A stretch of 64,000 nt of DNA. It comes from Perkinsus olseni (taxonomy: Eukaryota > Perkinsozoa > Perkinsida > Perkinsidae). The notes beneath the pieces are model-generated. The model made no database searches. It was not told the origin of the DNA and saw only the letters and a program-made list of their open reading frames with translations. Position numbers and translations under genes: made by a program. The stretch is from NCBI GenBank assembly GCA_013115135.1, contig JABANP010000022.1, positions 221,941-285,940 of the forward strand, written 5' to 3'. This document shows, one piece after another, positions 14,210 through 43,059 of the stretch (its first letter is position 1; each line of letters begins with the position of its first letter).

Positions 14210-16057
14210 TTACAACCCTTTGCGGGTCTCGTGAGCGAAGTCAGTAAGTCTTCTGATAACTTCCCTACAGGCCTCCTCACCGTCGGCCATCCAGGCGTAG
14301 CAGAATCTCACCATCCCAGGCTTGTCCGCAAAGAAGCAGCTGCCTGGCGACACGACCATGCGATAAGGATCCGACTTCAGCTTGTTGAAGAGACCCAATC
14401 CATCTTGATCGTCGGGCTCAATGAACTCGGTGAGATCACACCAAAGGAAGAGGCCAGCATGCGGTTCAGAGTAGGGTATGCTGAGCTTGCCCAATCCGTC
14501 ACATAAGATACGCTTGCAAGACGTCAGACGCTCCCTAGAGATCTGCAGAAAGCCCGCAAGCCACTGCTCATCATTAAGCATTCTGGCGCACACCTCTTGC
14601 GCTACTGGACTGACCATAGAGAAAATACTGTACTGCTTAGTCGCAGCGTGGCGGATGGTCTCAATGAGCTTCCAGTCTCTCTGTCTTGGGACGTTCATTA
14701 TCAGACCAACACGCATGCCCGAGAGGGCCATGTCTTTGCTGAAGCCCCAGAGCACTAACGTGGGAGGGTCGATGTCACCCTCGAGCAGTGGCAGATTCAA
14801 GGCCGAGATGTGAGGCCGACTGCAATCAGTGTGAACGCTGCATCCATAGATCTCATCAGATATCCACCACATGCGCTTCATACCACACCAATTCCGAATC
14901 CCTCGGAGCTCGTTAACGTCAGCGACGCTACCCATTGGGTTGCCGGGGTCCGTGGTGATGAGAGCACGCGGGCGATACCCTTCGCTGACACACTGCTTGT
15001 AGGCGCTGTCGAGGGCTGATCTGAAGATAATGAAAAGATGATGAACCGATGCGTTACTGATTATGAGAGACTCCCTGCACTTACAGTTTGATCTTGAACT
15101 CGTCATCAGCACTAGTCTTAACGGCGTACTTCACTACAACGTTGCCTTCGAGGGCGCAGTCAGTGGCGAAAACGGGATAGGCGGGGGAGGTGGTGATGAA
15201 ACAATCTTTACCATCACCTTCACCCAAGCAAAACGATATCATATTCATAGCCGAACCGCATCTGAATGACCAGCAACATTCAGTGGCAGCGGAAGCGTCC
15301 AGACCGAGCTCACCCGTTGGTGACACACAAGACATCCTGGGGAGACATTTTCTCCTCCTTGAGGATGTACTGGTCTGCGGTCTCTGCACTCGCCTCCAAG
15401 GCCTTCACGACGACTTCAGGAGGGGCCAGGTGAGTGGAGACAGCCTGCGCTACGGCTGACTTGAAGCCATGCATGCCAGAGAAATCACCATAGTCACAGA
15501 GTTCATGCCTCGGGAAGTTAGGGTCGGCAGCAAGCTCTCCGAGAACCTGACAGCACTTAAGATGCTTACCCACGACACTCCCTTCCCGCCATAAAATTCC
15601 GGTGAGGAAACGGACGAATATCAACGAGCCGGAGACAAGTAGATACATCTCGATCCCACGACCCACTATAAATGATGTCCTGCAACACTGTACAGTGAGA
15701 GACTACCACTCAGCACCATCAACTCCAATGACACCTCACAGTTGACCAAGACATCAAGAGCCCTTCGTTACCGCATGGCCTCACCTTCCTAAATTCTGCC
15801 TCGACCTCCGCTCCTACGGTCCTATTCTCCGCCATACACATGGGAATGAAACCCTTGGGGTTGGTATCTAGCAGTCTTACCCGTGAGCTTGCTGATGGCG
15901 CGACAAGCGAAAACCTACCCTTATCATACAGATCCTTTTGGGCCTCGGCGAAGGCGGGAGCATAGACGGTGAACTCGGTGGCAGCGGCCTTCTTGCCGCG
16001 CTTGGATACCCTGTACTGCGGTCTGGCATCCGCGCGCCTCAGGGTTTGCTCGACCAT
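14210..16057 (-). CDS. ACC-synthase-like PLP-dependent enzyme, 5 exons (copy 2)
   Basis: CDS complement(join(14210..15020, 15085..15261, 15314..15546, 15785..15867, 15919..16057)), 480 aa. All cofactor landmarks of the AAT-I fold are present: NPKGFIPMCMAEN, SPAYPVF with its Tyr, DPGNPMG with the Asn, SDEIYG with Asp and Tyr, catalytic Lys in SKDMALSGMRVG, and Arg in MVRFCYAW. The length matches ACC synthases (about 430-490 aa). All four introns match copy 1 in place and phase (1, 0, 2, 2), and exon 2 is 83 nt in both genes. The last 811-nt exon is uninterrupted where copy 1 has four introns. Cytosolic location is likely, as no targeting peptide is evident. ACC synthase, alliinase-like lyase or aminotransferase activity cannot be told apart here. 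Confidence 0.88.
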
Positions 16058-19793: not shown

Positions 19794-20983
19794 ATGCCCC
19801 TTCGAGCAGGCCCATCCCTAGGTCGGCTGGAGGTGCAGTCAATTGTACTGAAGAAGTTCGTCCTCGACCTCAAGAGCCCACTGCCGTTGTGTAGAGGCAG
19901 TGAGCGTGTGGACATTACCACCCGACAGGGGGTCTACGTCGTCCTACACTGCCAGTAGGTCCAACCTCGCCCGGGGTCGCTGTTCACTTGTTTTCCAGAT
20001 TCCATCCGCTTGGGACGTCATCACCTTCAACCCCCTGTTGCGGAGTCGGAGAGTCCTGCCCGCTGCCGCTCTTCCACCCTCAGCCTTGCTTCAACCCCGT
20101 CGCGGAGACGCCCGCGTTACCACATTTCGTTGAACTCACCGTAGATGGTATCTTCGAGGCGTGCAAGAACGCCGCACCGGAGAATGTCAGTCTACAGGGG
20201 GCACTTGAGATGGCGCTGCTTGCCTGTATATGCGACTCTACTGGAAGGATCCCCTCTGAAATATTATGGTGGTACGGAGGAGGCGTTGAGGAACAGTGCA
20301 AGATTGCAAGATCTATCAAGATTAACCAGATGTATACTCGCGAAGAAAGGAAGGATGGGGTCGTTTCTGGATGCGTCAAGCTTAAAGTTGGCGACGATCC
20401 GATCAGAGACGCCGAGAGGGTCAAGGCTGCCGCCGGTTCGATCAACGACGGCTTTCTCAGGCTGGACGCAAATCAGTCTTGGACACGAGCTGAATACCAA
20501 CTCTTCGCCGGATCCCTGACGAACGAGGCCAAGGCCAAGATAGAATATATTGAGGAGCCCACTGTGACTTGGGAAGACTGGTCCGCCGAGGTTGGTATAC
20601 CTATTGCCATGGACGAAAGCCTCGCGAGCGCTGCGAAGTTCCCCGCTTCCGAGGGAAGAGATGTTCACTTCGTCCTGAAGCCAGGGGTCCTGGGCTTCAG
20701 GCGTGCCTGCCAATACGTCGTCCGTTACGGCGGCCGCTGCTGCCTGTCGAGCATGTTCGAGTCCTCACTCTCCATGTATTGGTATACGGCTATGGCGGCG
20801 CTGTGCGGGAATCAGGTCTACCACGGGCTGAGTACCTCCGGCCGGCTGATTGAGGCGAGGGCTCCCTCCTATGATGAACTGATAGTGAAAGATGCTCTGT
20901 GGTCAGTGGACTTGACCGACTGTGAACGAGAGCTTCGAGAGTTGACTCTTTCGATTGTGCGTGATGATTCTCCCTTTTCCTGA
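19794..20983 (+). CDS. menC: o-Succinylbenzoate synthase (MenC), enolase superfamily
   Basis: CDS join(19794..19954, 19999..20983), 381 aa. The family dehydrates SHCHC to o-succinylbenzoate in menaquinone/phylloquinone synthesis. The full barrel active site is visible: KxK in CVKLKVG (base Lys), metal ligands in LDANQSW (Asp), YIEEP (Glu) and AMDES (Asp), and the second Lys in VLKPGVLG. The next strand reads SSMFESSLSM, the SSxxESSLG-type signature of OSBS enzymes. The N-terminal cap includes GVGESCPLPLFHP, the counterpart of GWGEISPLPGF. In plants and algae MenC is usually part of the PHYLLO fusion; here it stands alone. No clear plastid or mitochondrial leader is present unless an upstream exon exists. 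Related N-acylamino acid racemase activity cannot be excluded. Confidence 0.85.
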
Positions 20984-25021: not shown

Positions 25022-26827
25022 GATCGATTGTGCAATGAGCTGATAGTAGTGACAACTTCAAGTTAACTCCTCTAACCAAGTTGCAGCACACAGTTCGCCA
25101 CTAGACCTTGAGCTAGCGGACTATCCGCGCATGAAAGACTTTCCCGTGGATACGCTCGACACTGGGTGGCCATTCAGTCCAGTGTTTGCTCCAACCTCGT
25201 GGCGTTGAATATCCGACTCCACGGTGTTGAATGAAAGACACGTTGTCGATGAGATTTGTAACCAAGCAAAGAGTCGAGCCAACCACGAACGAACTTTCTT
25301 ACGTTACGGAGAACCACGGGATTACTGGACGAAGTTCGAACGCACTAAACTGAGAGAAGTAATTCCGATGAAACTCAGTCTTCAGCGGAGAGACTTTTCC
25401 TCCGTAGCACCATTCTCGGATGTATTGCTGAGCCTGCAGAGGCGTTAGATGTTCTAAGGGCGCTTCCTTTCCCAGGGAAGGGACGAGTATAGCAGCGCTG
25501 TGCCGGAAATTTTTCCGTTGTTCATAAGACTTGCTGTCTCGCTTCTCTCTGCGTTCACTTGAGTTTTTCCATCTATGGAAGCACGATGGCTTCGAGCGCT
25601 GGGTGTTCCGAGAGACAAGGTGCGCGGTTAATCATTCACGCAGTTCATTGGTAGCAAATACAGGTGACCCCACACCCAGAGTAAACGTTTTCTAGATCCA
25701 AAACACAATCCTGAGCTCCGTGAAGAAAATGAAGCACTCAAGTCCACGCCAAGGCTTGTTTCCCGCGGCCTCTCCACCAACCTTGATGTGTCAGCACTTG
25801 TGACAGGATATCATTAGTCCGGGCGAAGGAGTGCTCTAACCTTGGGCTACTATTCGATATCTTTCCTGAGTGCTCTGTGAAATTGCAGTGTGAGACCACG
25901 GCGTCTTCGGACAAGCCGAATAGGTTTGCCACCAGCACGGCATTAGACCAGCTAATTCTATTATTAGAAGCATCGCGTTCAACAGCAGAATTCCGGTAGA
26001 ACTACTTCCTAACAATCTTCCGTTCTTCGAGCGCGACCAAACCCTATCAGAAATGTTCGCGCGCACGGGTACGGCCACGGGTCCACCGTTCGCGGTCCAT
26101 GCCTGTGCGAATGTGATGAGCGTAGTGACCGCCCCGTGAGATAGAGTGATTCGGGAAGCGCGACGCTGAAGCGCTAGAGCATGTGCTAGCGCGAAGCTTC
26201 GCCGATCCACAACGATTAGAACAAGAATCTATCGAGGAGAGGACTGTTCGCTCTGCGTCCGACGATTCACCAAGCCGATCATCTCAAGAAAAGGAGCACC
26301 ATACTCCGGAATGTTGATTGGAGATGAGCAAGCGAGACAGGACGTGTCGCAAGCCGTCATCCCCAGCACTTGATGGAGAAGATAGCGCCTTCTCCTTGTC
26401 ACTCCGTCAACCAACGCAGGGTGATTTTCGAGTGCAGTTTTCCTTGCTTCAGTTAGCTATCGAGCAAGGTACTGAGGATGTGTGGCGATAAAACTCTCAG
26501 CAATACCCACGTTCAGTAACCCTAGCCAATCGTTCAAGACGCGCACATCATCGTTGAGAAGCTGCAAGAGTATGCAAGTGCGCAAGGTACTCCTCAATAC
26601 TCGGAGCGACCACTGGATCCCAGCGCTAGCTTGTGCGTTATGGCGCGTGAACTGGTGGCCTGAAGGCAGACATCGCTGCCCTTCTCTCCGTTGAGCAGCT
26701 GAGCTTGAAGCTGGAAAGATACGGAGAGCCTTCTCGGTCGCAACCCCAACCCCGCACAAGAAGCGTACGGTCCTCGGTGTCAGAGTTTTTATTCAATTAT
26801 TTTTGGTCCTTAAGAGAGATCATCATC
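25022..26827 (-). pseudogene. Possible broken gene, otherwise no gene
   Basis: On the minus strand, protein-like segments appear at about 26460-26590, 26229-26455 and 25738-26200, but they need a stop codon (TAG at the 26457 end) to be read through and changes of frame near 25990 to connect. One segment carries a helical stretch with LNDDVRVLNDWLGLLNVGIA, another has a QAWTANGGPVAVPV piece. No family is recognised. The options are a decaying gene, missed short introns, or chance. Confidence 0.25.
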
Positions 26828-28872
26828 ATGGCCGAGTGCAGCACCCCGTCAACGCTGTCGGGCCTAGATCGGGACAGTGTTCACCGTTATTCGCCCTTAG
26901 TTGAAATCAGGGACGAAACTGCTCCACAGAAATGGTGATGATACTGAGCCAATCGGTGCGCCCTTCGTGGATCAACTTTTTCTATCAGGTTCGAAGGTTA
27001 TCTGGCCGACGTTGATGTGGCTAAGAAGATGGTGGGGTTTTTTCTACTAGGCTTAGTTGAATAACATCATTTACTCTTCAGATAACAGTCGCCTTCCAAG
27101 ATGACGTTTGGGGACCGAAGACTGTACCAATGTCCCAGGTAAGTGGGCCACTCCGTTGTTTGAATAGATTCCCTCGTTAATTTGCTGAGAATGCACGGCT
27201 CAGGCACGCTTGGTCCCCTCTTTAACGAGCAAGGCACTGAGCTCAGCGTACGAGTATATGCCCAGAGAGGGAGACACTGTTGAAGTAGGAGTTGTGGAAA
27301 TTACGGTACTGTAACGATTGGCGTCGTGTCAGGTTAGGTCTCCTGCTACTGGACACGCTCCAGTCAGTTGGTGGAGTGGTGAGATCGTCAGTATTCGAGC
27401 TGATGAGTTTTTTTCTATGTTAAAAATTCGGAGTTGCATGAGCCGATTATCGTCGAGCGTGCGAATCTTCGTCGACCTATGGGCTGCCCTGACGACGGAA
27501 GTGATTCTGGTCGGAGCTTGAGTAAGACTGTCCACTGATCGAATCGTCAATGAATGGCTTTCTCTGTGCCTTTGGGAAGATGAGCGACTGGTCTCAGGTC
27601 CTACCAGCCTATCAGACTTGAGCTCAGAGACGGTTAAAGTTCCTAAGGTCCTCGGTGATTGGATAATGAGTGATGACGGTCAAGGCTGCCTCAATCAAGT
27701 GGCGATCAAATCAGGTCTCTTGAAGGTAGTAGCACTCAGCCTTGCTGTTCCGCTCTCTGCTATCACCGGCGTATGAGCTCATTGCGGTGCATCGGGCTCA
27801 CGTCAGCCGGTCTTGCGATTCCAGAGAACTTGATGCCCCTCAGATAACGCCGCGGGCCGATCAAAAGACTGGCCCATCGGTAACACTCATCGGTAGTCAA
27901 CGAGACATCCACCGGGCCAAGCTCCTGCTCGACGTTCATGTTAAGCATCAAAAGGAGATCCAGGGCTTCCACGAGAAGCGACAGGCTATGCTCGACGTAG
28001 GAGAAGGGGGTACTCTAGGCACTATCGTCACGGCGTGAGAAATTGGAGAGCCAGGAGTCGGCCTCCTTCAATATCGACTCCGACCTGGTCGGTGTTATGA
28101 TTGGCAAGAACGGCGCTCACATAAACCGAGTGATCAAGGACTACGGAGTTGAAGTCAACGTTGCTGATAAGGGTACTGCAAGAGACCCCAAATCTAGGAG
28201 GGTGGTCATATATGGCCCGTCGGTTGACGCAGTGAATAAGGCCAGGGCCGAGCTCGAGTACCTCACCGAGAGGTAGGGGTTCACTGAGTGTCGAGCCTTC
28301 TCATTGGCTCTGCAGGTACCCAATACCACAGGATTGCATCGGTTGGGTTATCGGTCGTCGGTTCGCCACACTGCATGAGATAGCAGACTCTGCGAACTTG
28401 AATTATGCCCGGCTCGACGAGTCTACAGGCTCGCCTTGTCTGGTACTCAGTGGCAGAAGGCAGGACCTCGATGACGCCAAGTTGCTGCTGGACAGCCATC
28501 TCCAGTATCATGATGTTTTCGAGGACATGGCCAAGGAGTCGCGAGAGCTCGGTGATGAGTTTTATCGTCTCGGTGATGGTCCGGGTCCTCGGCGAGGGAA
28601 GGGCAAGGGTAAGAACAGCACCCAGTGCGCTACAGCAGACGACGCGTGGTCTTTCCTCAGGCAAGGGCAAAGGTGGTGGCGGCGGTGGCAAAGGGCGGAG
28701 TAGAGGGAGTGGGTCGTCTGATTCAGTGAACTCCGCTGGTGCTGGCCGACCAAATCGACCTGCTCGACGGAAAGGATCAGGAGCTCAACGCAGCTCGGGT
28801 TCCGACGGCAAGAAGTGGGTTCAAGTGAAGAAGGACGGAACTCCGAAAGCTGAAGCGCTGTCTGCAAGCTGA
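26828..28872 (+). CDS. FMR1/FXR-type RNA-binding protein (Agenet x2, KH x3, RGG-like tail)
   Basis: Exons 26828..26934, 26989..27031, 27082..27138, 27204..27284, 27333..27521, 27598..27714, 27827..27996, 28040..28272, 28316..28608 and 28661..28872 give about 500 aa. Domains run as in animal FMRP. Agenet/Tudor 1 has LVEIRDE then ITVAFQDDVWGPKTVPM; Agenet 2 has REGDTVEV, WWSGEIVSIRADEFF and VERANLRRP. A KH0-like part has RDIHRAKLLLDVHVKHQKEI. KH1 has LVGVMIGKNGAHINRV; KH2 has CIGWVIGRRFATLHEI and later AKLLLDSHLQYHDVF. The tail is Gly/Lys/Arg-rich. FMRP-family proteins bind RNA and restrain translation. Exon 5 needs one extra base at a run of seven T (27408-27414) to stay in frame; all other junctions are consistent. 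Confidence 0.85.
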
Positions 28873-30466
28873 TCTACAGCTCACTGAGCTTTTCACCCAT
28901 TCTCATCAATGTATACTTTTATCGTATGAGTACAGCCGCCAATGATCGTGGCATCTGCGTAGTGCTTCGTGGTTGTCTGACGCTGGACAGTTGTCCACTA
29001 GAAGGGTTCACGCTCCTCATTGTCTTGTTTGCCGTCTCGAGATTTCTCGATTGCAAACAGCTTTGTGCACTATCTCGTTGCAGTAGGTGTAGTTGTAGAA
29101 CACAACATAAGTAGATTGGGCTCATAGTGAACGAGATAGAGCAGATAGGGAGCGTAATTGTTGAGAGAATGGAATGACAATGCGAAGCTAGTATGAACAC
29201 AGCTCCATTGTGTTATGTAGACAGTGCATTTGCTCGGTAGTGTTAGGAGGATACTACTACTCTCCTCTATTAGATAAGCTTAGAGTATTTTTACCTCTTA
29301 CCGGTGTTGAGTTCAGAAGTGATGCAGCGCGGCCCATCGATCGACAGAAAGCTATCTGACATCACCTTTCATATCTTCAACACACGAGATCTCGTTGCGG
29401 ACAGCGAGTTGCGGTGTCGGTGGAAAGTGCGGTGTTGTGCACAGGTTCCCATCAAACTATTATTACCAGCGAACGCGTTAGCCGCCGGTACAGTACACAT
29501 GTTCCTGTCGAATACTCCCAAATTCCAAACAGTTGCGTGTTCACTTGAATGTACATTCCCTGATCCGGGAATCCTGGATCAGTGTAACAACTTGTTAGTA
29601 ACAAGTTGTTACCCTCGCTGCCTTTTGCCTTTTGTTACTAACAAGGGGGTCTGCGCCTACCCTTCCTGTTGCCCTACGTTTGACAGCCAGCCTAAAGAAG
29701 ACAGCGGTTCCCGCGTTTGACTGCGCTTGTGGGCGGATATCTTCAACGTCGTGATCGTCGTGTCGATTGATACTATAGGTAGTCGATGCCAGTGACTCTG
29801 GTAACACAATCCCAAAGGCAATACAGATATCAGATAATACTTGAGCTGCTGTCGACAAGTTGGCGGACGGGCCAACTGTAATCCACAAAAGAATCCACGA
29901 AAAACCCTAGATGCAATCGATCCTTTGACGCATTCACATACAAGCTGCGCTTAACACTCTCGCGCCCGCCAAATACTGTCTATCTGTCTACCTTGCACGC
30001 GCGGGCCGCACAGTCAAAAAGTTAACAGCAGCAAGCGAGGCCGAACGGAGTCGATTTACATATAGCGAACAATCGATATCTCGCAGCTAGAACACTGGCC
30101 AACAAGAGCAGGCAGATCCTCCTGCCACAAGAGGTACACGCGTACAGTACGCGTGGTAACTACGGTAGTACGCGTGCAGCAGCCAGCCCATTGAGGGCCT
30201 ACCGATATCGGAGTAGGTCCAGGCTCACCCGCAGTCTCGATGGGTGGGGCGGGGTTAATCGGTTCACGCAAAGGCCGCACGAAATACCACGGAGCTCGAC
30301 GATAAGCAGAATTTGGAGAAGTTGCACCAATCCTGGGTAGTGCTCTAGCCGCTGTCGCTAGCACAAAAATCTTGTCTCCTACCGTCCAGGTTCCACCGTC
30401 GATAAATCCCTCCGGGTTCTCCCTCAGCAGGACGAAAGAGCTGCACAGATCTATTCATACAACTCG
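28873..30466. other. Intergenic region with a strong hairpin
   Basis: No gene is supported in this 1.6 kb. A perfect 12-bp inverted repeat with a 5-base loop lies at 29584-29612. The related word TTGTTACTAACAAG follows at about 29631-29644. Short palindromic words around ACGCGTAC and TACGCGTG cluster at about 30135-30177. A 138-codon frame at 29304-29720 spans the hairpin and has no recognisable content. Confidence 0.4.
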
Positions 30467-31591
30467 ATGAATTACGTGATGAGCTTGGTCAATCTGATGC
30501 TCGTAGGGCTGCTCCTTGGTAAGGCGGCCCTCCCCCCTGGGGTTGTAGACTTCCCCATCAGAGTAGGCGGAAATCGCTCTCTGGTCGAGCTGGTCTTCGA
30601 TGGTCAGCCCGTGAGGCTTCTCCCCGATACTGGAGGCGCTAACACTTACGTCCTCTACGAGGATGCGTTTGGCGAAACTGCATGTCGGACTTATGCTGCA
30701 GGCTGCTACACTTGCCCGAAGAATTCCTGTCCACCAAGCAGCTGGGTCAACGGATCAGCATTGTTTGCTGATGGGACGATCTTCTACTATTTTTCGTCAT
30801 GCTGCACAGCTTGATATCGGCGCTATCGGCGCGGAGGTTCTGAAGATTGAAGACTACAAACTCAGTGTCATCAAAGGTTACGAGCCTAGAAAGGCCTCTC
30901 CTCATCCCATCCTAGGCTTGCGCAGAGAGCCATCATTCTCTCGTTCTCGGCGGTCCTTCATTCACCAGCTCGTGAGAGGCGCCGGTGGTGCGATTCGGAG
31001 GTTAGCGTTTTCAATAACCTTTTCCTAGGTCGGCCGATGACGTAGGGCATCTCACTGTTGGCGGCGATCCCGACCCAGCTTGGCACGCTCCATTCATCAC
31101 TCTACATCAACGCGACGGCCAAAGCATGGACTCTCAGTATCGATGAGGTTGGCTACCGGAAAGGCTCTGAATCCGAGTCCATCGGTATCAAGAGGGGTCG
31201 CGTTCTCTTCGACTCGGGCGCTGGTGTTATCATCGGGCCGGTGGAAGAGGTGACGAGTCTGTTGAACTACATCGGCAAGTTCGTTGAGTTCAGGGGAGGC
31301 GATATTTTGAAACTCATCGCTTGCTCTGACGTTGATAAACTGCCGGAAATATGGTTTGATGTCATGGCTGACGACGCTGAAGGTTTAACTACAAGGCTGT
31401 TCGTGAGTGGGCAGGATTACGCAGTTGCCGCTGATAAGCCGGGGTTGTGCACGATTGACATCGCCGGCGCCGACCTAGTCCACATAGTTCACTACGAGTG
31501 GATTCTAGGCTCCCCTCTCTTTAGGGGATACTTCCTACAGTTCACTTATGATGTGGAGTCCATCGGGTTCGCCAAGAAAAGGTCTTTTTGA
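30467..31591 (+). CDS. Pepsin-family aspartic protease (A1), with frame breaks
   Basis: The N-terminus is a signal peptide (hydrophobic residues 4-21). The first catalytic motif is LLPDTGGANTYVL (DTG), and the second is VLFDSGAGVIIG (DSG). Other family marks are HPILGL, DVGHLTVGG and a C-terminal WILGSPLFRGYF ... IGFAKK. The product should be a secreted or endolysosomal protease. A 32-bp intron (gttagcg...cctag, ending at about 31027) restores the frame before DDVGHLTVGG. Two further frame changes remain: one at a run of five T near 30790 and one near 31093. They may be sequencing errors, unseen introns or true disruption, so the gene could be a pseudogene. Many alveolate parasites carry expanded A1 proteases, which is background knowledge. 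Confidence 0.75.
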
Positions 31592-34192
31592 CCCATGAGC
31601 GAACAGAGGAATTCCCTACGGGCGAACTCTACAGAAGGTTAGCTCATCGACAGCGATCGTAGGCAAATCTTGAAGCATCATATAATCCTTTTTCCTCGGC
31701 TAAAGTCGTTATGCTTGCCAACTCCCCAAATGACAGTGCGACCTGATATGTGATAGCGGTGGTGTACGCATACCTTTGTAGTTGACTACGTATCCATCTT
31801 CCGTTCGTGTAAGGATTCGCGTGGTCTGTCACTATCCGAGAGACTTTCTCCCTTCTCAAACTTCGTTTTAATAGTATTGGTATCACCGAGACCAGCGATC
31901 TTGTGTTTTCACTCATGAACACCATCTTTTCGACCCCTCACAGACCAGCGGAAAGTACTGTTGAACAACACACAGACTTTTTATGAACTGGTCGACAAGA
32001 CATGCTCAGGGACCACCATGCTGCCGACTCATACACACCTTCCACCTCTTGTACCTTAGCGGCGTCTCAATGGTTCAAGAGGGCCAGTCGACTAATCGAC
32101 AGTCTATAGCGGAAAAAGGCTATTCGTGGCATGAACGTGGTGAACTGGTGCGAAGTTCATGGTTTTGAGCGCCCGAAGATGTCCTTGAGTCGTGCAAAAC
32201 GACAGATGCTTTACATGTTCATGACTATGGGGGAGGAGCTGTTGTACGGGCACTTCAAATACTGGGTCATCATAGCCGACTAGGTCGGGGAGCATCGCGT
32301 ACTGTCGCTCAGACCAACCTGCCAAATCACAACGGTGGATGCAGTCCGAAAAGACGACTAAGCAAGGCAAGCCCGCACTGGCCACCCCGAGAGCGCTCAC
32401 CGGATAAGTAGGCATACTGTAAAGCGAACTGTCCCCGCGCTCCCAGCTCGATCACTTGGCCACAGACTGGCTGAGCTATCATCCAGAAAAGTGCTCCATC
32501 GTGAGGTCCTGCAGTGCATCGGGACTGCCTTAGCTGAGTTGATGATTGTTCTACCGATGAGCAGATCAGTCGACGCTGCTGCTTCCATCTGGTCCTTTAT
32601 TGTCATCGTCGCGAAAGGGACGCGACGAACTGATACACCACTGGACCTGATCCGCCTTGCCTTCTAGCTGCTAACCAATGGCGCTAGAGCATCCCACCTG
32701 AAGACGAGACTCTGGAGGACCTCGTCCGGATTGGCGATGCGCCTGCTGAACGAAGGATAGCGCTGTATGAGGGTTATCCTAAAGTCACGATCCGCCCGAC
32801 CTGAAACATTCGCTTCATAGGGTGCATCCCCGGAGAGGTCGGGGATAACTACGATTTTTCTGGAGAAATGACGATTGCAATCCGGACTGTTCCATGAGAC
32901 GCCGTCCGTAGTCGATGATAACACTGCTCGGCCCGCAAGGCTTCATTGTGTTTATGAAGAGCCGCCCCACTGGGACGGGGAAGATGACCTGCTCGGTGGA
33001 ATCACCATCAAGAGGAGCGTTGCGGCTGACCTGTCGAAAGCAAACCGTAGAGGTCTGTGCGTTGATGATGCCGTCTGGGTATATGATATCGGGCGCAACG
33101 AGCTGGTAGAGATGGGCAACTCGAAAGATGGCGTCCTTTACCAAGTCGGATCTGGAGTTGATCAGCAGTTGAACCTGAAGGTTGAGCAACGATTGCTCGC
33201 CGCGATGTGTCCGATCCGTTTCGTCGTGGAATCCGCCAATGACTTTACCTGGTCTGGTGTCCTGCCGCTGAGGGCGATTGTGATGTAGATAGAGAGAGCA
33301 TCTAAGTGGACGTACCTTGAGGGCGCGAAGGTCTCAGCGATTCTATTGAGGAGCGGATGAGTACCAGGCGTTCTTATGGTTGTCGAAAGCCGGGCGGAAG
33401 ATGATAACAGGTTTATCCGAGCCAAGTACTGAGCTGCATCTGACCAAAAACTCACCGTCGCCTCGACCCTGAAGCGACGACAATGACCCTTACTGGTCTT
33501 CTGAATACACTTTCTCGGTAGTATCTGAGGGAACAATTCGGACCTTACACGAGCGAGGTGATGGCACGAGGTGAGCGGTAGGCTGCGACTCACATAGACT
33601 AGCGATCTCCTCGTTGGGACTGTCCGTGTAAGTGTCGAATCGCAGTCCCTGACCAAGGCAGATGAGACAGCCACCACGCGACAGACTGCCCAGGAACCCC
33701 ACAATTCGTTACTTTTCGAGCCATTTGGCAGTGCCCTTGCAACTTCAGGCGCCCGTCGATCATATCTTCCTTACTCGCCGTGAGCCGTGAGGCGGTACCT
33801 GGAGGACGGAGCGTCGTCCAGGTAGACCTAGGCCCGGATGCCGTCGAACTGACAGTAGTAGTCTCGAACGACATCGAGCTTGTCGACAAGACCGCTATCC
33901 CAGACTTGGCACTTCACCTCAGTCTGCCGAGACGACTCGGATCCTTTCGGTCCGGTACCTACGGGTTGGGGCCATCGGCGGCAGCGCCGTTAACCCAGCC
34001 CTCACAAAGATCAATGATATTCCCCCCGGCTGAGATGTCTTTCCGTTTTTTTGACAGCCACGAACCACCGGCCACATCGTTACACGCTTGGCTGCCTGCG
34101 AGAAAGATACTCACAGCGGAAAGTGCGGTGATTCTGATTATGGAATGATAGCATATAGTGAAGGTAGCGGGAAGGGCATGAACGATCCTCAA
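31592..34192. other. Unresolved coding region, probably mainly minus strand
   Basis: Both strands carry protein-like segments. On the minus strand a signal-peptide-like start near 34180 (about LSAVSIFLAGSQAC) leads into charged sequence to about 33845, with one frame change at a C-rich spot (about 33965-33985). Further segments lie at 33490-33702. On the plus strand a 138-codon frame at 32875-33288 looks equally coding, including DGEDDLLGGITIKRSVAADL. I cannot choose between them or name a family. One or two multi-exon genes are likely. Confidence 0.3.
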
Positions 34193-42219: not shown

Positions 42220-43059
42220 TCACCGAAGTAACTTCAGATTCTTGAAGAAGGCTCCGACCCGGGACTTGTAGGCTGGCGCAGTGGCCAGGGCAGTGGGTAT
42301 ATTCTCAGGCTGCTCGATCCACAGCTTGTGGGCAATCTTCGCTGTGGTGAGCTCCTGCAGAGAGAACCCTCTATCTCAGAGATCGACGAGTCATGTAAGA
42401 ATAGGGCAGAGCTTGGGCCCAGGCAAGCATCGTGTGAGAAACAGGATACGTCACGTGACCGAAGATAACGAACTAGCTCCGAAGAGTTAGTCCAAACGGG
42501 ATGCAGGCGTTTGAGCGGCGTTAAGAAGAAGTTTGTATCGGGAGGAAGAGCGCCACTGATATGCATGTACAAGAGGAGAGATCCCCCTTCGTGCAGTATG
42601 CGTTAAGACTTCTACTGGTTCACGGAATTACGCGAATCATAGCGCTTATAGCACTCCGGTGCACCCTTCAGCGACTCCTACCTGCGATAGCTGCTGAAGG
42701 GTCGCCTCGTCATCGGCCTTGAGTATGCACTTGGTCATATTGTCAATGTCCGATAGATACTTGGCTGTGTCAGCGTCGTTGATGGTCTCGAAAATGGCTG
42801 CCGTTGAAGCATGGCAGGCCTGCACGCAGGAACGTGAACAGGAAAAGCACCAAGGCCGCTCGACGCAATAGTCCACCTCGGCCTAGTAATGGACCGAGTT
42901 GCTCACTAAGTAAAAGAGTATCGTTTCGCTACACCCTCCCATTACCTGAGCTATGATCGCTCCTTGGTTCCACACCTTATCCTTCATCAGATCCTTCCGT
43001 ACTACGATGTACTGTAGCAAGTAGTCTCCAACTGCCGAGGCCTCGGTGCTATCCGTCAT
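42220..43059 (-). CDS. PTRHD1: PTRHD1-like peptidyl-tRNA hydrolase-fold protein
   Basis: CDS complement(join(42220..42354, 42682..42819, 42946..43059)), 128 aa. It belongs to the PTH2 fold, closest to animal PTRHD1. Shared motifs: LLQYIVVRKDL, GAIIAQACHASTAAI, DDEATLQQLSQ and LWIEQPENIPTALATAP, ending in VGAFFKNLK. PTH2 enzymes free stalled peptidyl-tRNA; for PTRHD1 the activity is not well established. The length equals that of the family (about 130-140 aa). All three exons are multiples of three, so both introns are phase 0. Intron 2 is long for this window (327 bp). The gene lies head to tail with Ste24 on the same strand, 136 bp upstream of its start. Confidence 0.9.

What the first reader, a model, noticed from the sequence alone, without database searches (positions are those of the whole stretch)
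26828..28872. Complete FMRP/FXR-like domain order in a protist gene
Ten exons on the plus strand give, in order, two Agenet/Tudor units, a KH0-like part, KH1, KH2 and a Gly/Lys/Arg-rich tail, at about 500 aa. Motif after motif has its counterpart in animal FMRP: VTVAF-type strand, WW-x-EIV, the NEIVTIERLR-like VERANLR, RAKLLLDVH, LVG-IGKNGAHI. FMR1-family proteins are best known from animals and their close unicellular relatives, so a full-length member in an alveolate-like genome would mean either an ancient origin with many losses or lateral transfer.
Basis: partly seen in the sequence, partly recalled or inferred. Interest (0 to 1): 0.88.

Follow-up and report, generated by a model that had tools for sequence, protein, structure and literature searches.

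The report
Fragile X protein relative in Perkinsus
A single-celled shellfish parasite carries a relative of the animal fragile X protein with nearly the same domain layout, and similar proteins turn up in a dinoflagellate and in haptophyte algae, so this RNA-binding protein design is probably far older than animals.

Summary
Ten exons at 26828-28872 (+) encode a Perkinsus olseni protein of about 500 aa: two Agenet/Tudor units, a KH0-like stretch, KH1, KH2 and a Gly/Lys-rich tail. A profile of 24 protist relatives without any animal sequence ranks FMR1/FXR1/FXR2 chains as its eight best hits in the PDB (58-113 bits). Outside that family the best KH hit has 46 bits and the best Agenet hit 24.

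Corrections:
- Public databases already name the gene "fragile X mental retardation".
- The window's copy is frame-broken at a T-run in exon 5. A second copy in the same assembly (contig C255) is one open frame, and the flanking exons are strongly constrained.
- The layout is right but divergent: KH2 has lost GxxG, P0001 has no RGG motif, the animal-specific Pfam models do not match, and KH0 alone is not distinguishable.

Relatives also occur in dinoflagellate-like sequences (one tied to Oxyrrhis marina) and in haptophytes. Animals, haptophytes and Perkinsus+dinoflagellate-like proteins form separate groups (99-100% bootstrap). Ancient origin with losses is favoured over recent transfer from an animal, but AU tests are mixed. 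Ten literature searches found no description of this.

The parts
26828..26934 (+). exon 1: N-terminus and start of Agenet/Tudor 1
   Evidence: matches the start of P0001
26989..27031 (+). exon 2: Agenet 1 (FEGYLADVDVAKKM)
27082..27138 (+). exon 3: Agenet 1 (ITVAF strand)
   Evidence: aligned with FXR1 3kuf and FXR2 3h8z
27204..27284 (+). exon 4: end of Agenet 1 and start of Agenet 2 (GDTVEV)
   Evidence: donor at 27285 gives DTVEVRSPATG as in P0001 and P0004
27333..27521 (+). exon 5: Agenet 2 (WW, ..IIVERANLR); the frame changes inside it in this copy
27408..27414 (+). T homopolymer at which the frame changes in the window's copy; the C255 copy reads on in one frame
27598..27725 (+). exon 6: first half of the KH0-like part
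   Evidence: start set by P0001
27844..27996 (+). exon 7: second half of the KH0-like part (RAKLLLDVH) and helical linker
   Evidence: start set by P0001
27997..28018 (+). intron 7, 22 nt here and 49 nt in the C255 copy
   Evidence: coding on both sides is kept in P0001, P0003, P0004
28019..28272 (+). exon 8: KH1 with canonical GxxG (GKNG)
   Evidence: aligned with FMR1 2qnd
28316..28608 (+). exon 9: KH2 (degenerate loop GRRF), post-KH2 helix, start of Gly/Lys tail
28661..28872 (+). exon 10: Gly/Lys/Arg-rich tail and stop codon TGA

Best explanation
This is a nuclear gene of Perkinsus olseni for a member of the FMR1/FXR protein family in the broad sense. It shares descent with dinoflagellate-like, haptophyte and animal proteins, most likely by vertical inheritance within the myzozoan alveolates. 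Shown here by sequence: common descent of the tandem Agenet, KH1 and KH2 domains in that order, with a KH-like stretch in the KH0 place. Inferred: it acts as a cytoplasmic RNP adaptor. The tandem Agenet would bind methylated or partner proteins, KH1 (intact GKNG loop) would bind single-stranded RNA, KH0 and the degenerate KH2 would act as scaffold, and the basic Gly/Lys tail would hold RNA or ribosomes non-specifically, together tuning translation or storage of mRNAs. The window's copy is one of two near-identical copies and is frame-broken as assembled; the other copy is intact.
For: Single-sequence query (first exon model): best PDB hits are FMR1 KH1-KH2 (2qnd, 1.6e-10) and FXR1 Agenet (3kuf, 1.3e-4). 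Protist-only profile of 24 sequences: FMR1 4qw2 (Agenet-Agenet-KH0, profile 8-220 in one stretch, 113 bits, 1.2e-31), 2qnd (98.6 bits), FXR1/FXR2/FMR1 Agenets (85-94 bits); best hits outside the family are FUBP2 KH at 46 bits and another Agenet protein at 24 bits. hhalign of 14 protist proteins against a marsupial FMR1 (Dromiciops, P0007): E 9.5e-38 over 367 columns. Single-domain profiles, best stretch in P0007: Agenet1 23.7, Agenet2 41.8, KH1 45.6, KH2 34.7 bits, each at the expected place; best stretch in 2000 shuffles 4.0-7.7. Orthologues in P. marinus and P. chesapeaki; a diverged second gene on contigs C109/C694. Three of ten proteins scanned (P0005, P0010, P0015) show a sub-threshold Tudor_FRX1 match, about 12 bits. 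KH1 GxxG in 27 of 28 rows. pN/pS 0.04 in exons 1-4 and 0.02 in exons 6-9. For the mechanism: animal tandem Tudor domains bind trimethyl-lysine peptides (PMC2970552, passages); KH domains with altered GxxG are said not to bind RNA (PMC12787238, passage).
Against: The KH0-only profile scores 20.9 bits on KH2 of P0007 and only 7.5 on KH0 (best shuffle 6.2), so KH0 identity rests on position and on the continuous 4qw2 match. The KH0-KH1 linker and post-KH2 profiles are below shuffles. Pfam Tudor_FRX1, KH_9, FXMRP1_C_core and FXMR_C2 do not match the Perkinsus proteins scanned. Identity to animal FMR1 is 24%. No RNA-seq, binding or localisation data were available.
Confidence: 0.85

Rival explanations
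1. Lateral transfer: an FMR1 gene was acquired from an animal (for instance the bivalve host) by Perkinsus or by an early myzozoan.
For: Animals are the best-known holders of the family. The AU test on the 22-row set does not reject animal+Perkinsus (p 0.116). No mollusc or choanoflagellate sequence was in the trees.
Against: Perkinsus groups with dinoflagellate-like proteins at 99% bootstrap in two trees. AU p 0.025 against animal+Perkinsus in the 27-row set. Identity to animals is only 24%. Haptophytes hold the family too. An acquisition before the Perkinsus-dinoflagellate split, or an old exchange with haptophytes (hapto+Perkinsus AU p 0.118), is not excluded.
Confidence: 0.08
2. Convergent domain shuffling: Agenet and KH domains were joined independently in alveolates, haptophytes and animals.
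For: Agenet and KH are common domains. The KH0, linker and post-KH2 segments give no specific signal on their own.
Against: In the PDB the Agenet and the KH parts of the protist profile each pick FMR1/FXR first by a wide margin. Order and spacing align in one continuous stretch of 367 columns.
Confidence: 0.05
3. The window's copy is a decaying allele or pseudogene rather than a working gene (not exclusive of family membership).
For: The frame changes at 27408-27414, and intron 7 is shortened to 22 nt, which may splice badly.
Against: Exons on both sides of the break are strongly constrained between the copies (1 of 8 and 2 of 28 differences non-synonymous), so any inactivation is recent. Wrong homopolymer length is also a common assembly error. 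The C255 copy is intact.
Confidence: 0.3

Closest known systems
Animal FMR1/FXR1/FXR2 (FMRP family)
   Same: Order tandem Agenet/Tudor - KH0 place - KH1 - KH2 - Gly/basic tail; WW in Agenet 2; GxxG in KH1; profile match over Agenet to KH2.
   Different: 24% identity; KH2 GxxG lost; RGG count 0 in P0001 and P0004 and 1 in P0003; no FXMRP1_C_core/FXMR_C2, KH_9 or Tudor_FRX1 match in the Perkinsus proteins scanned.
Dinoflagellate-like relatives (P0005, P0006, P0010-P0017; only P0016 tied to an organism: MMETSP0469 = Oxyrrhis marina)
   Same: Same layout as far as they reach (P0006 and P0017 are N-terminally incomplete); one group with Perkinsus.
   Different: 30-36% identical to P0001; with the Perkinsus rows, KH2 GxxG kept in 3 of 13.
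Haptophyte relatives (Emiliania huxleyi P0037, Prymnesium sp. P0034, Calcidiscus leptoporus P0030, and unnamed metagenomic kin)
   Same: Same layout as far as they reach (P0034 starts in Agenet 2); P0019 aligns with P0007 over 455 columns at 25%, part of it Gly-rich tail.
   Different: Both KH loops canonical in 12 of 12 rows; at least one RGG in 10 of 12; separate group.

Membership tests
FMR1/FXR family | N-terminal tandem Agenet/Tudor domains | tested here: met
   FXR1 3kuf 1.3e-4 with the single sequence; 4qw2, 3kuf, 3h8z, 2bkd 85-113 bits with the protist profile; Pfam Agenet 29 bits, cut-off 27, in the window's sequence, 26.7 in P0001
FMR1/FXR family | KH0 domain between Agenet 2 and KH1 | tested here: inconclusive
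   the 4qw2 match runs through KH0 in one stretch, but Pfam KH_9 is absent and the KH0-only profile scores 7.5 bits there against 20.9 on KH2
FMR1/FXR family | adjacent KH1 and KH2 without spacer | tested here: met
   2qnd 1.6e-10, 98.6 bits with profile
FMR1/FXR family | canonical GxxG loops in both KH1 and KH2 | tested here: not met
   KH1 GKNG intact; KH2 reads GRRF in P0001. I take it as a feature of the animal and haptophyte proteins, not of descent
FMR1/FXR family | RGG box in the C-terminus | tested here: not met
   0 RGG in the last 250 residues of P0001; the animal row P0047 also has 0, P0007 and P0008 have 2 each
FMR1/FXR family | FXMRP1_C_core / FXMR_C2 C-terminal modules | tested here: not met
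   absent from P0001 and P0004 at E up to 10, present in P0007
FMR1/FXR family | polysome association and RNA binding | not testable with these tools
   needs biochemistry

The most novel reading that the evidence does not exclude
The FMR1/FXR protein was already assembled (tandem Agenet, KH0, KH1, KH2, Gly-rich tail) in an ancestor shared by animals, haptophytes and alveolates, possibly the last eukaryotic common ancestor, and was lost in many lineages. Its first job was then general translational or mRNP control in single cells, long before neurons.
Probability: 0.55. Interest if true: 0.72.

Novelty: new member of a known kind. Interest (0 to 1): 0.58.

Why it matters
FMRP is studied mainly as an animal, neuronal protein. 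Family members with the same layout in perkinsids, a dinoflagellate and haptophytes would date the design to before animals. They also supply natural variants (KH2 without GxxG, no RGG motif, no animal C-terminus) that separate the ancestral core function from animal additions. Dinoflagellates lean on post-transcriptional and translational control (review PMC12787238; abstract start and passages seen), so an FMR1-like protein there is a concrete candidate regulator; a term search of that review found no fragile X, FMR or Agenet.

Tried and rejected
First exon guesses (acceptors 27579, 27777 and 28039) were dropped because P0001 and the C255 copy place exons 6-8 at 27598, 27844 and 28019. The queries still carried that first model (525 aa).

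Own-genome searches: Tudor_FRX1 and FragX_IP/CYFIP gave nothing, but their controls were silent too, so they show nothing. DOT1 was not found while one control rang. Piwi gave five matches, three over the cut-off. None of these decides the mechanism.

The codon count over all ten exons was spoiled by an indel in exon 10. It was replaced by exons 1-9 (39 synonymous, 4 non-synonymous) and then by exons 1-4 and 6-9 without exon 5. The domain scores are whole-protein sums; one search gives them per stretch and is the one cited.

Rows left out of both trees: P0002 (chimeric model), P0009 and P0039 (near-duplicates), P0017 and P0038 (incomplete), P0020 (a longer KH protein with no Agenet listed), and P0024, P0027-P0029, P0032, P0033, P0035, P0036, P0040-P0046 (not aligned; several are short or partial). 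The second tree also left out POL2, P0016, P0047, P0037 and P0034.

Literature: ten searches. FMRP with Perkinsus gave one unrelated oyster paper, fragile X mental retardation with Perkinsus none, FMRP with haptophyte one unrelated paper. Broad searches returned more papers than were listed, and I saw listings only. Most subscription journals are not held, so absence from print is not proven.

Full report
What and where. The window is the last 64 kb of contig C135 (285,940 bases) of a 61.5-Mb, 968-contig assembly. The public protein P0002, "fragile X mental retardation [Perkinsus olseni]", lies on a contig of exactly that length, so the organism is taken to be Perkinsus olseni. The gene runs 26828-28872 on the + strand in ten exons with nine GT-AG introns. 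Exon edges were checked against P0001 (P. olseni, another contig) and against a second copy in the same assembly on contig C255. That copy aligns at 94.8% over window 25883-29065 and 98.2% over 29229-32075 and may be another haplotype.

State of this copy. In the window's copy the frame changes at a T homopolymer (27408-27414) inside exon 5. In the C255 copy the ten exons give one open frame of 503 codons before the stop. Intron 7 is 22 nt here and 49 nt in C255. Leaving exons 5 and 10 out, the copies differ by 7 synonymous and 1 non-synonymous site in exons 1-4 and by 26 and 2 in exons 6-9 (pN/pS 0.04 and 0.02). The protein is therefore under strong constraint, and the break is recent or an assembly error. 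The public model P0002 skips exon 5 and runs on into a piece encoded at 31148-31588, for which Pfam PF00026 (aspartic protease) is precomputed. It looks chimeric and should not be used.

Family. Pfam finds Agenet (29 bits, cut-off 27) and two KH_1 stretches (68.7 bits) in the window's sequence, and none of the four animal FMR1-specific models; P0001 and P0004 give the same picture, P0001 with Agenet just under the cut-off (26.7), and three of the dinoflagellate-like proteins scanned show a sub-threshold Tudor_FRX1 match. The best PDB hits of the single sequence are FMR1 KH1-KH2 (2qnd, 1.6e-10) and FXR1/FXR2 tandem Agenet (3kuf, 3h8z), with KH domains of IGF2BP, PCBP and others at weaker E-values. 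The strongest test used a profile of 24 protist relatives with no animal in it. In 177,635 distinct PDB sequences its eight best hits are all FMR1/FXR1/FXR2: 4qw2 covers Agenet 1 to the KH0-KH1 linker in one stretch at 113 bits, and 2qnd covers KH1-KH2 at 98.6 bits. The best hits outside the family are FUBP2 (KH) at 46 bits and another Agenet protein at 24 bits. hhalign of 14 protist sequences to a marsupial FMR1 (P0007) aligns 367 columns at E 9.5e-38. Single-domain profiles against P0007 and 2000 shuffles place Agenet 1 (23.7 bits), Agenet 2 (41.8), KH1 (45.6) and KH2 (34.7) correctly, best shuffle 4.0-7.7. The KH0 profile prefers KH2 (20.9 bits) to KH0 (7.5; best shuffle 6.2), and the linker and post-KH2 pieces fall below shuffles.

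Distribution. Three protein searches (each scored about 8,000 candidates only) returned 9, 17 and 29 proteins, overlapping. Relatives of the same layout, as far as they reach, are three Perkinsus species; ten proteins that I call dinoflagellate-like from their grouping (P0005, P0006, P0010-P0017), of which only P0016 is tied to an organism (MMETSP0469, listed as Oxyrrhis marina in PMC9983209, passage seen); and haptophytes Calcidiscus leptoporus (P0030), Prymnesium sp. (P0034) and Emiliania huxleyi (P0037) with unnamed metagenomic kin. Apicomplexans, ciliates, fungi and plants were not tested specifically. P. olseni also seems to have a diverged second gene on contigs C109 and C694, which match each other at 94.9%; its exon structure was not solved. 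Its KH1 loop reads GKGG and its KH2 loop lacks GxxG.

Trees. With 27 rows and 368 columns, animals (100%), haptophytes (99%) and Perkinsus plus dinoflagellate-like proteins (99%) are each one side of a branch (root placed on animals by choice; POL2 and P0016 are long branches). A 22-row tree gives the same groups, with a warning that the haptophyte and animal long branches meet. AU tests: animal+Perkinsus p 0.025 and 0.116; haptophyte+Perkinsus p 0.118; dinoflagellate-like rows alone as a clade p 0.44. Transfer is therefore disfavoured rather than excluded, and branching inside the myzozoan group is open. The animal sample is vertebrate only (P0007, P0008, P0047).

Function. KH1 GxxG is intact in 27 of 28 rows; the exception, P0004, has a gap there. 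KH2 GxxG is intact in 3 of 13 myzozoan, 12 of 12 haptophyte-type and 3 of 3 animal rows. The P0001 tail is Gly/Lys-rich without RGG. The most likely action, by inference, is an RNP adaptor that binds RNA chiefly through KH1 and the basic tail and partner proteins through the tandem Agenet, affecting translation or mRNA storage. Supporting background: animal tandem Tudor domains prefer trimethylated peptides (PMC2970552, passages), and KH domains with altered GxxG are reported not to bind RNA (PMC12787238, passage).

Literature. No held paper links fragile X mental retardation to Perkinsus; FMRP with Perkinsus or with haptophyte each gave one unrelated paper. The 2026 dinoflagellate RNA-binding-protein review has no occurrence of fragile, FMR or Agenet (term search). 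A 2012 review says that FMRPs among other factors are highly conserved and that their roles seem conserved across eukaryotes, but the passages seen give FMRP examples from animals only (PMC3361156). The Holozoa Tudor paper mentions FMR once, as a partner of TDRD3 (PMC12147562, passages). Most subscription journals are not held.

Verdict. It is a real, conserved FMR1-family gene in a protist, and part of a wider protist family. It is already named so in databases, but its evolutionary meaning was not found in the library searched.

Noticed in passing
window 26828-31588: Public gene model P0002 from this contig skips exon 5 and joins the FMR1-like gene to a piece at 31148-31588 that carries the aspartic-protease match; the model looks chimeric.
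   Followed up: partly
window 27997-28018: A 22-nt GT-AG intron in this copy, 49 nt in the C255 copy; the other eight introns here are 43-118 nt. Whether it is spliced is unknown.
   Followed up: partly
L010 (C109:8058-9208, minus) and L011 (C694:11402-12542, plus): An apparent diverged second FMR1-like gene of P. olseni, 41-42% identical to P0001 over KH2, on two contigs that match each other at 94.9%.
   Followed up: partly
window 42551-42702 (-): Rfam 5.8S rRNA match (47.1 bits, cut-off 42) with no SSU or LSU match in the window at gathering thresholds; possibly a stray or pseudogene copy.
   Followed up: partly
window 14213-15130 (-): Open frame matching aminotransferase class I/II (Pfam PF00155, 102 bits).
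   Followed up: no
window 19904-20980 (+): Open frame matching the enolase-superfamily C-terminal domain (PF13378, 56 bits); by recall it looks like o-succinylbenzoate synthase.
   Followed up: no
P0004: The public P. chesapeaki protein lacks 15 residues around the KH1 GxxG loop; probably a gene-model error.
   Followed up: no
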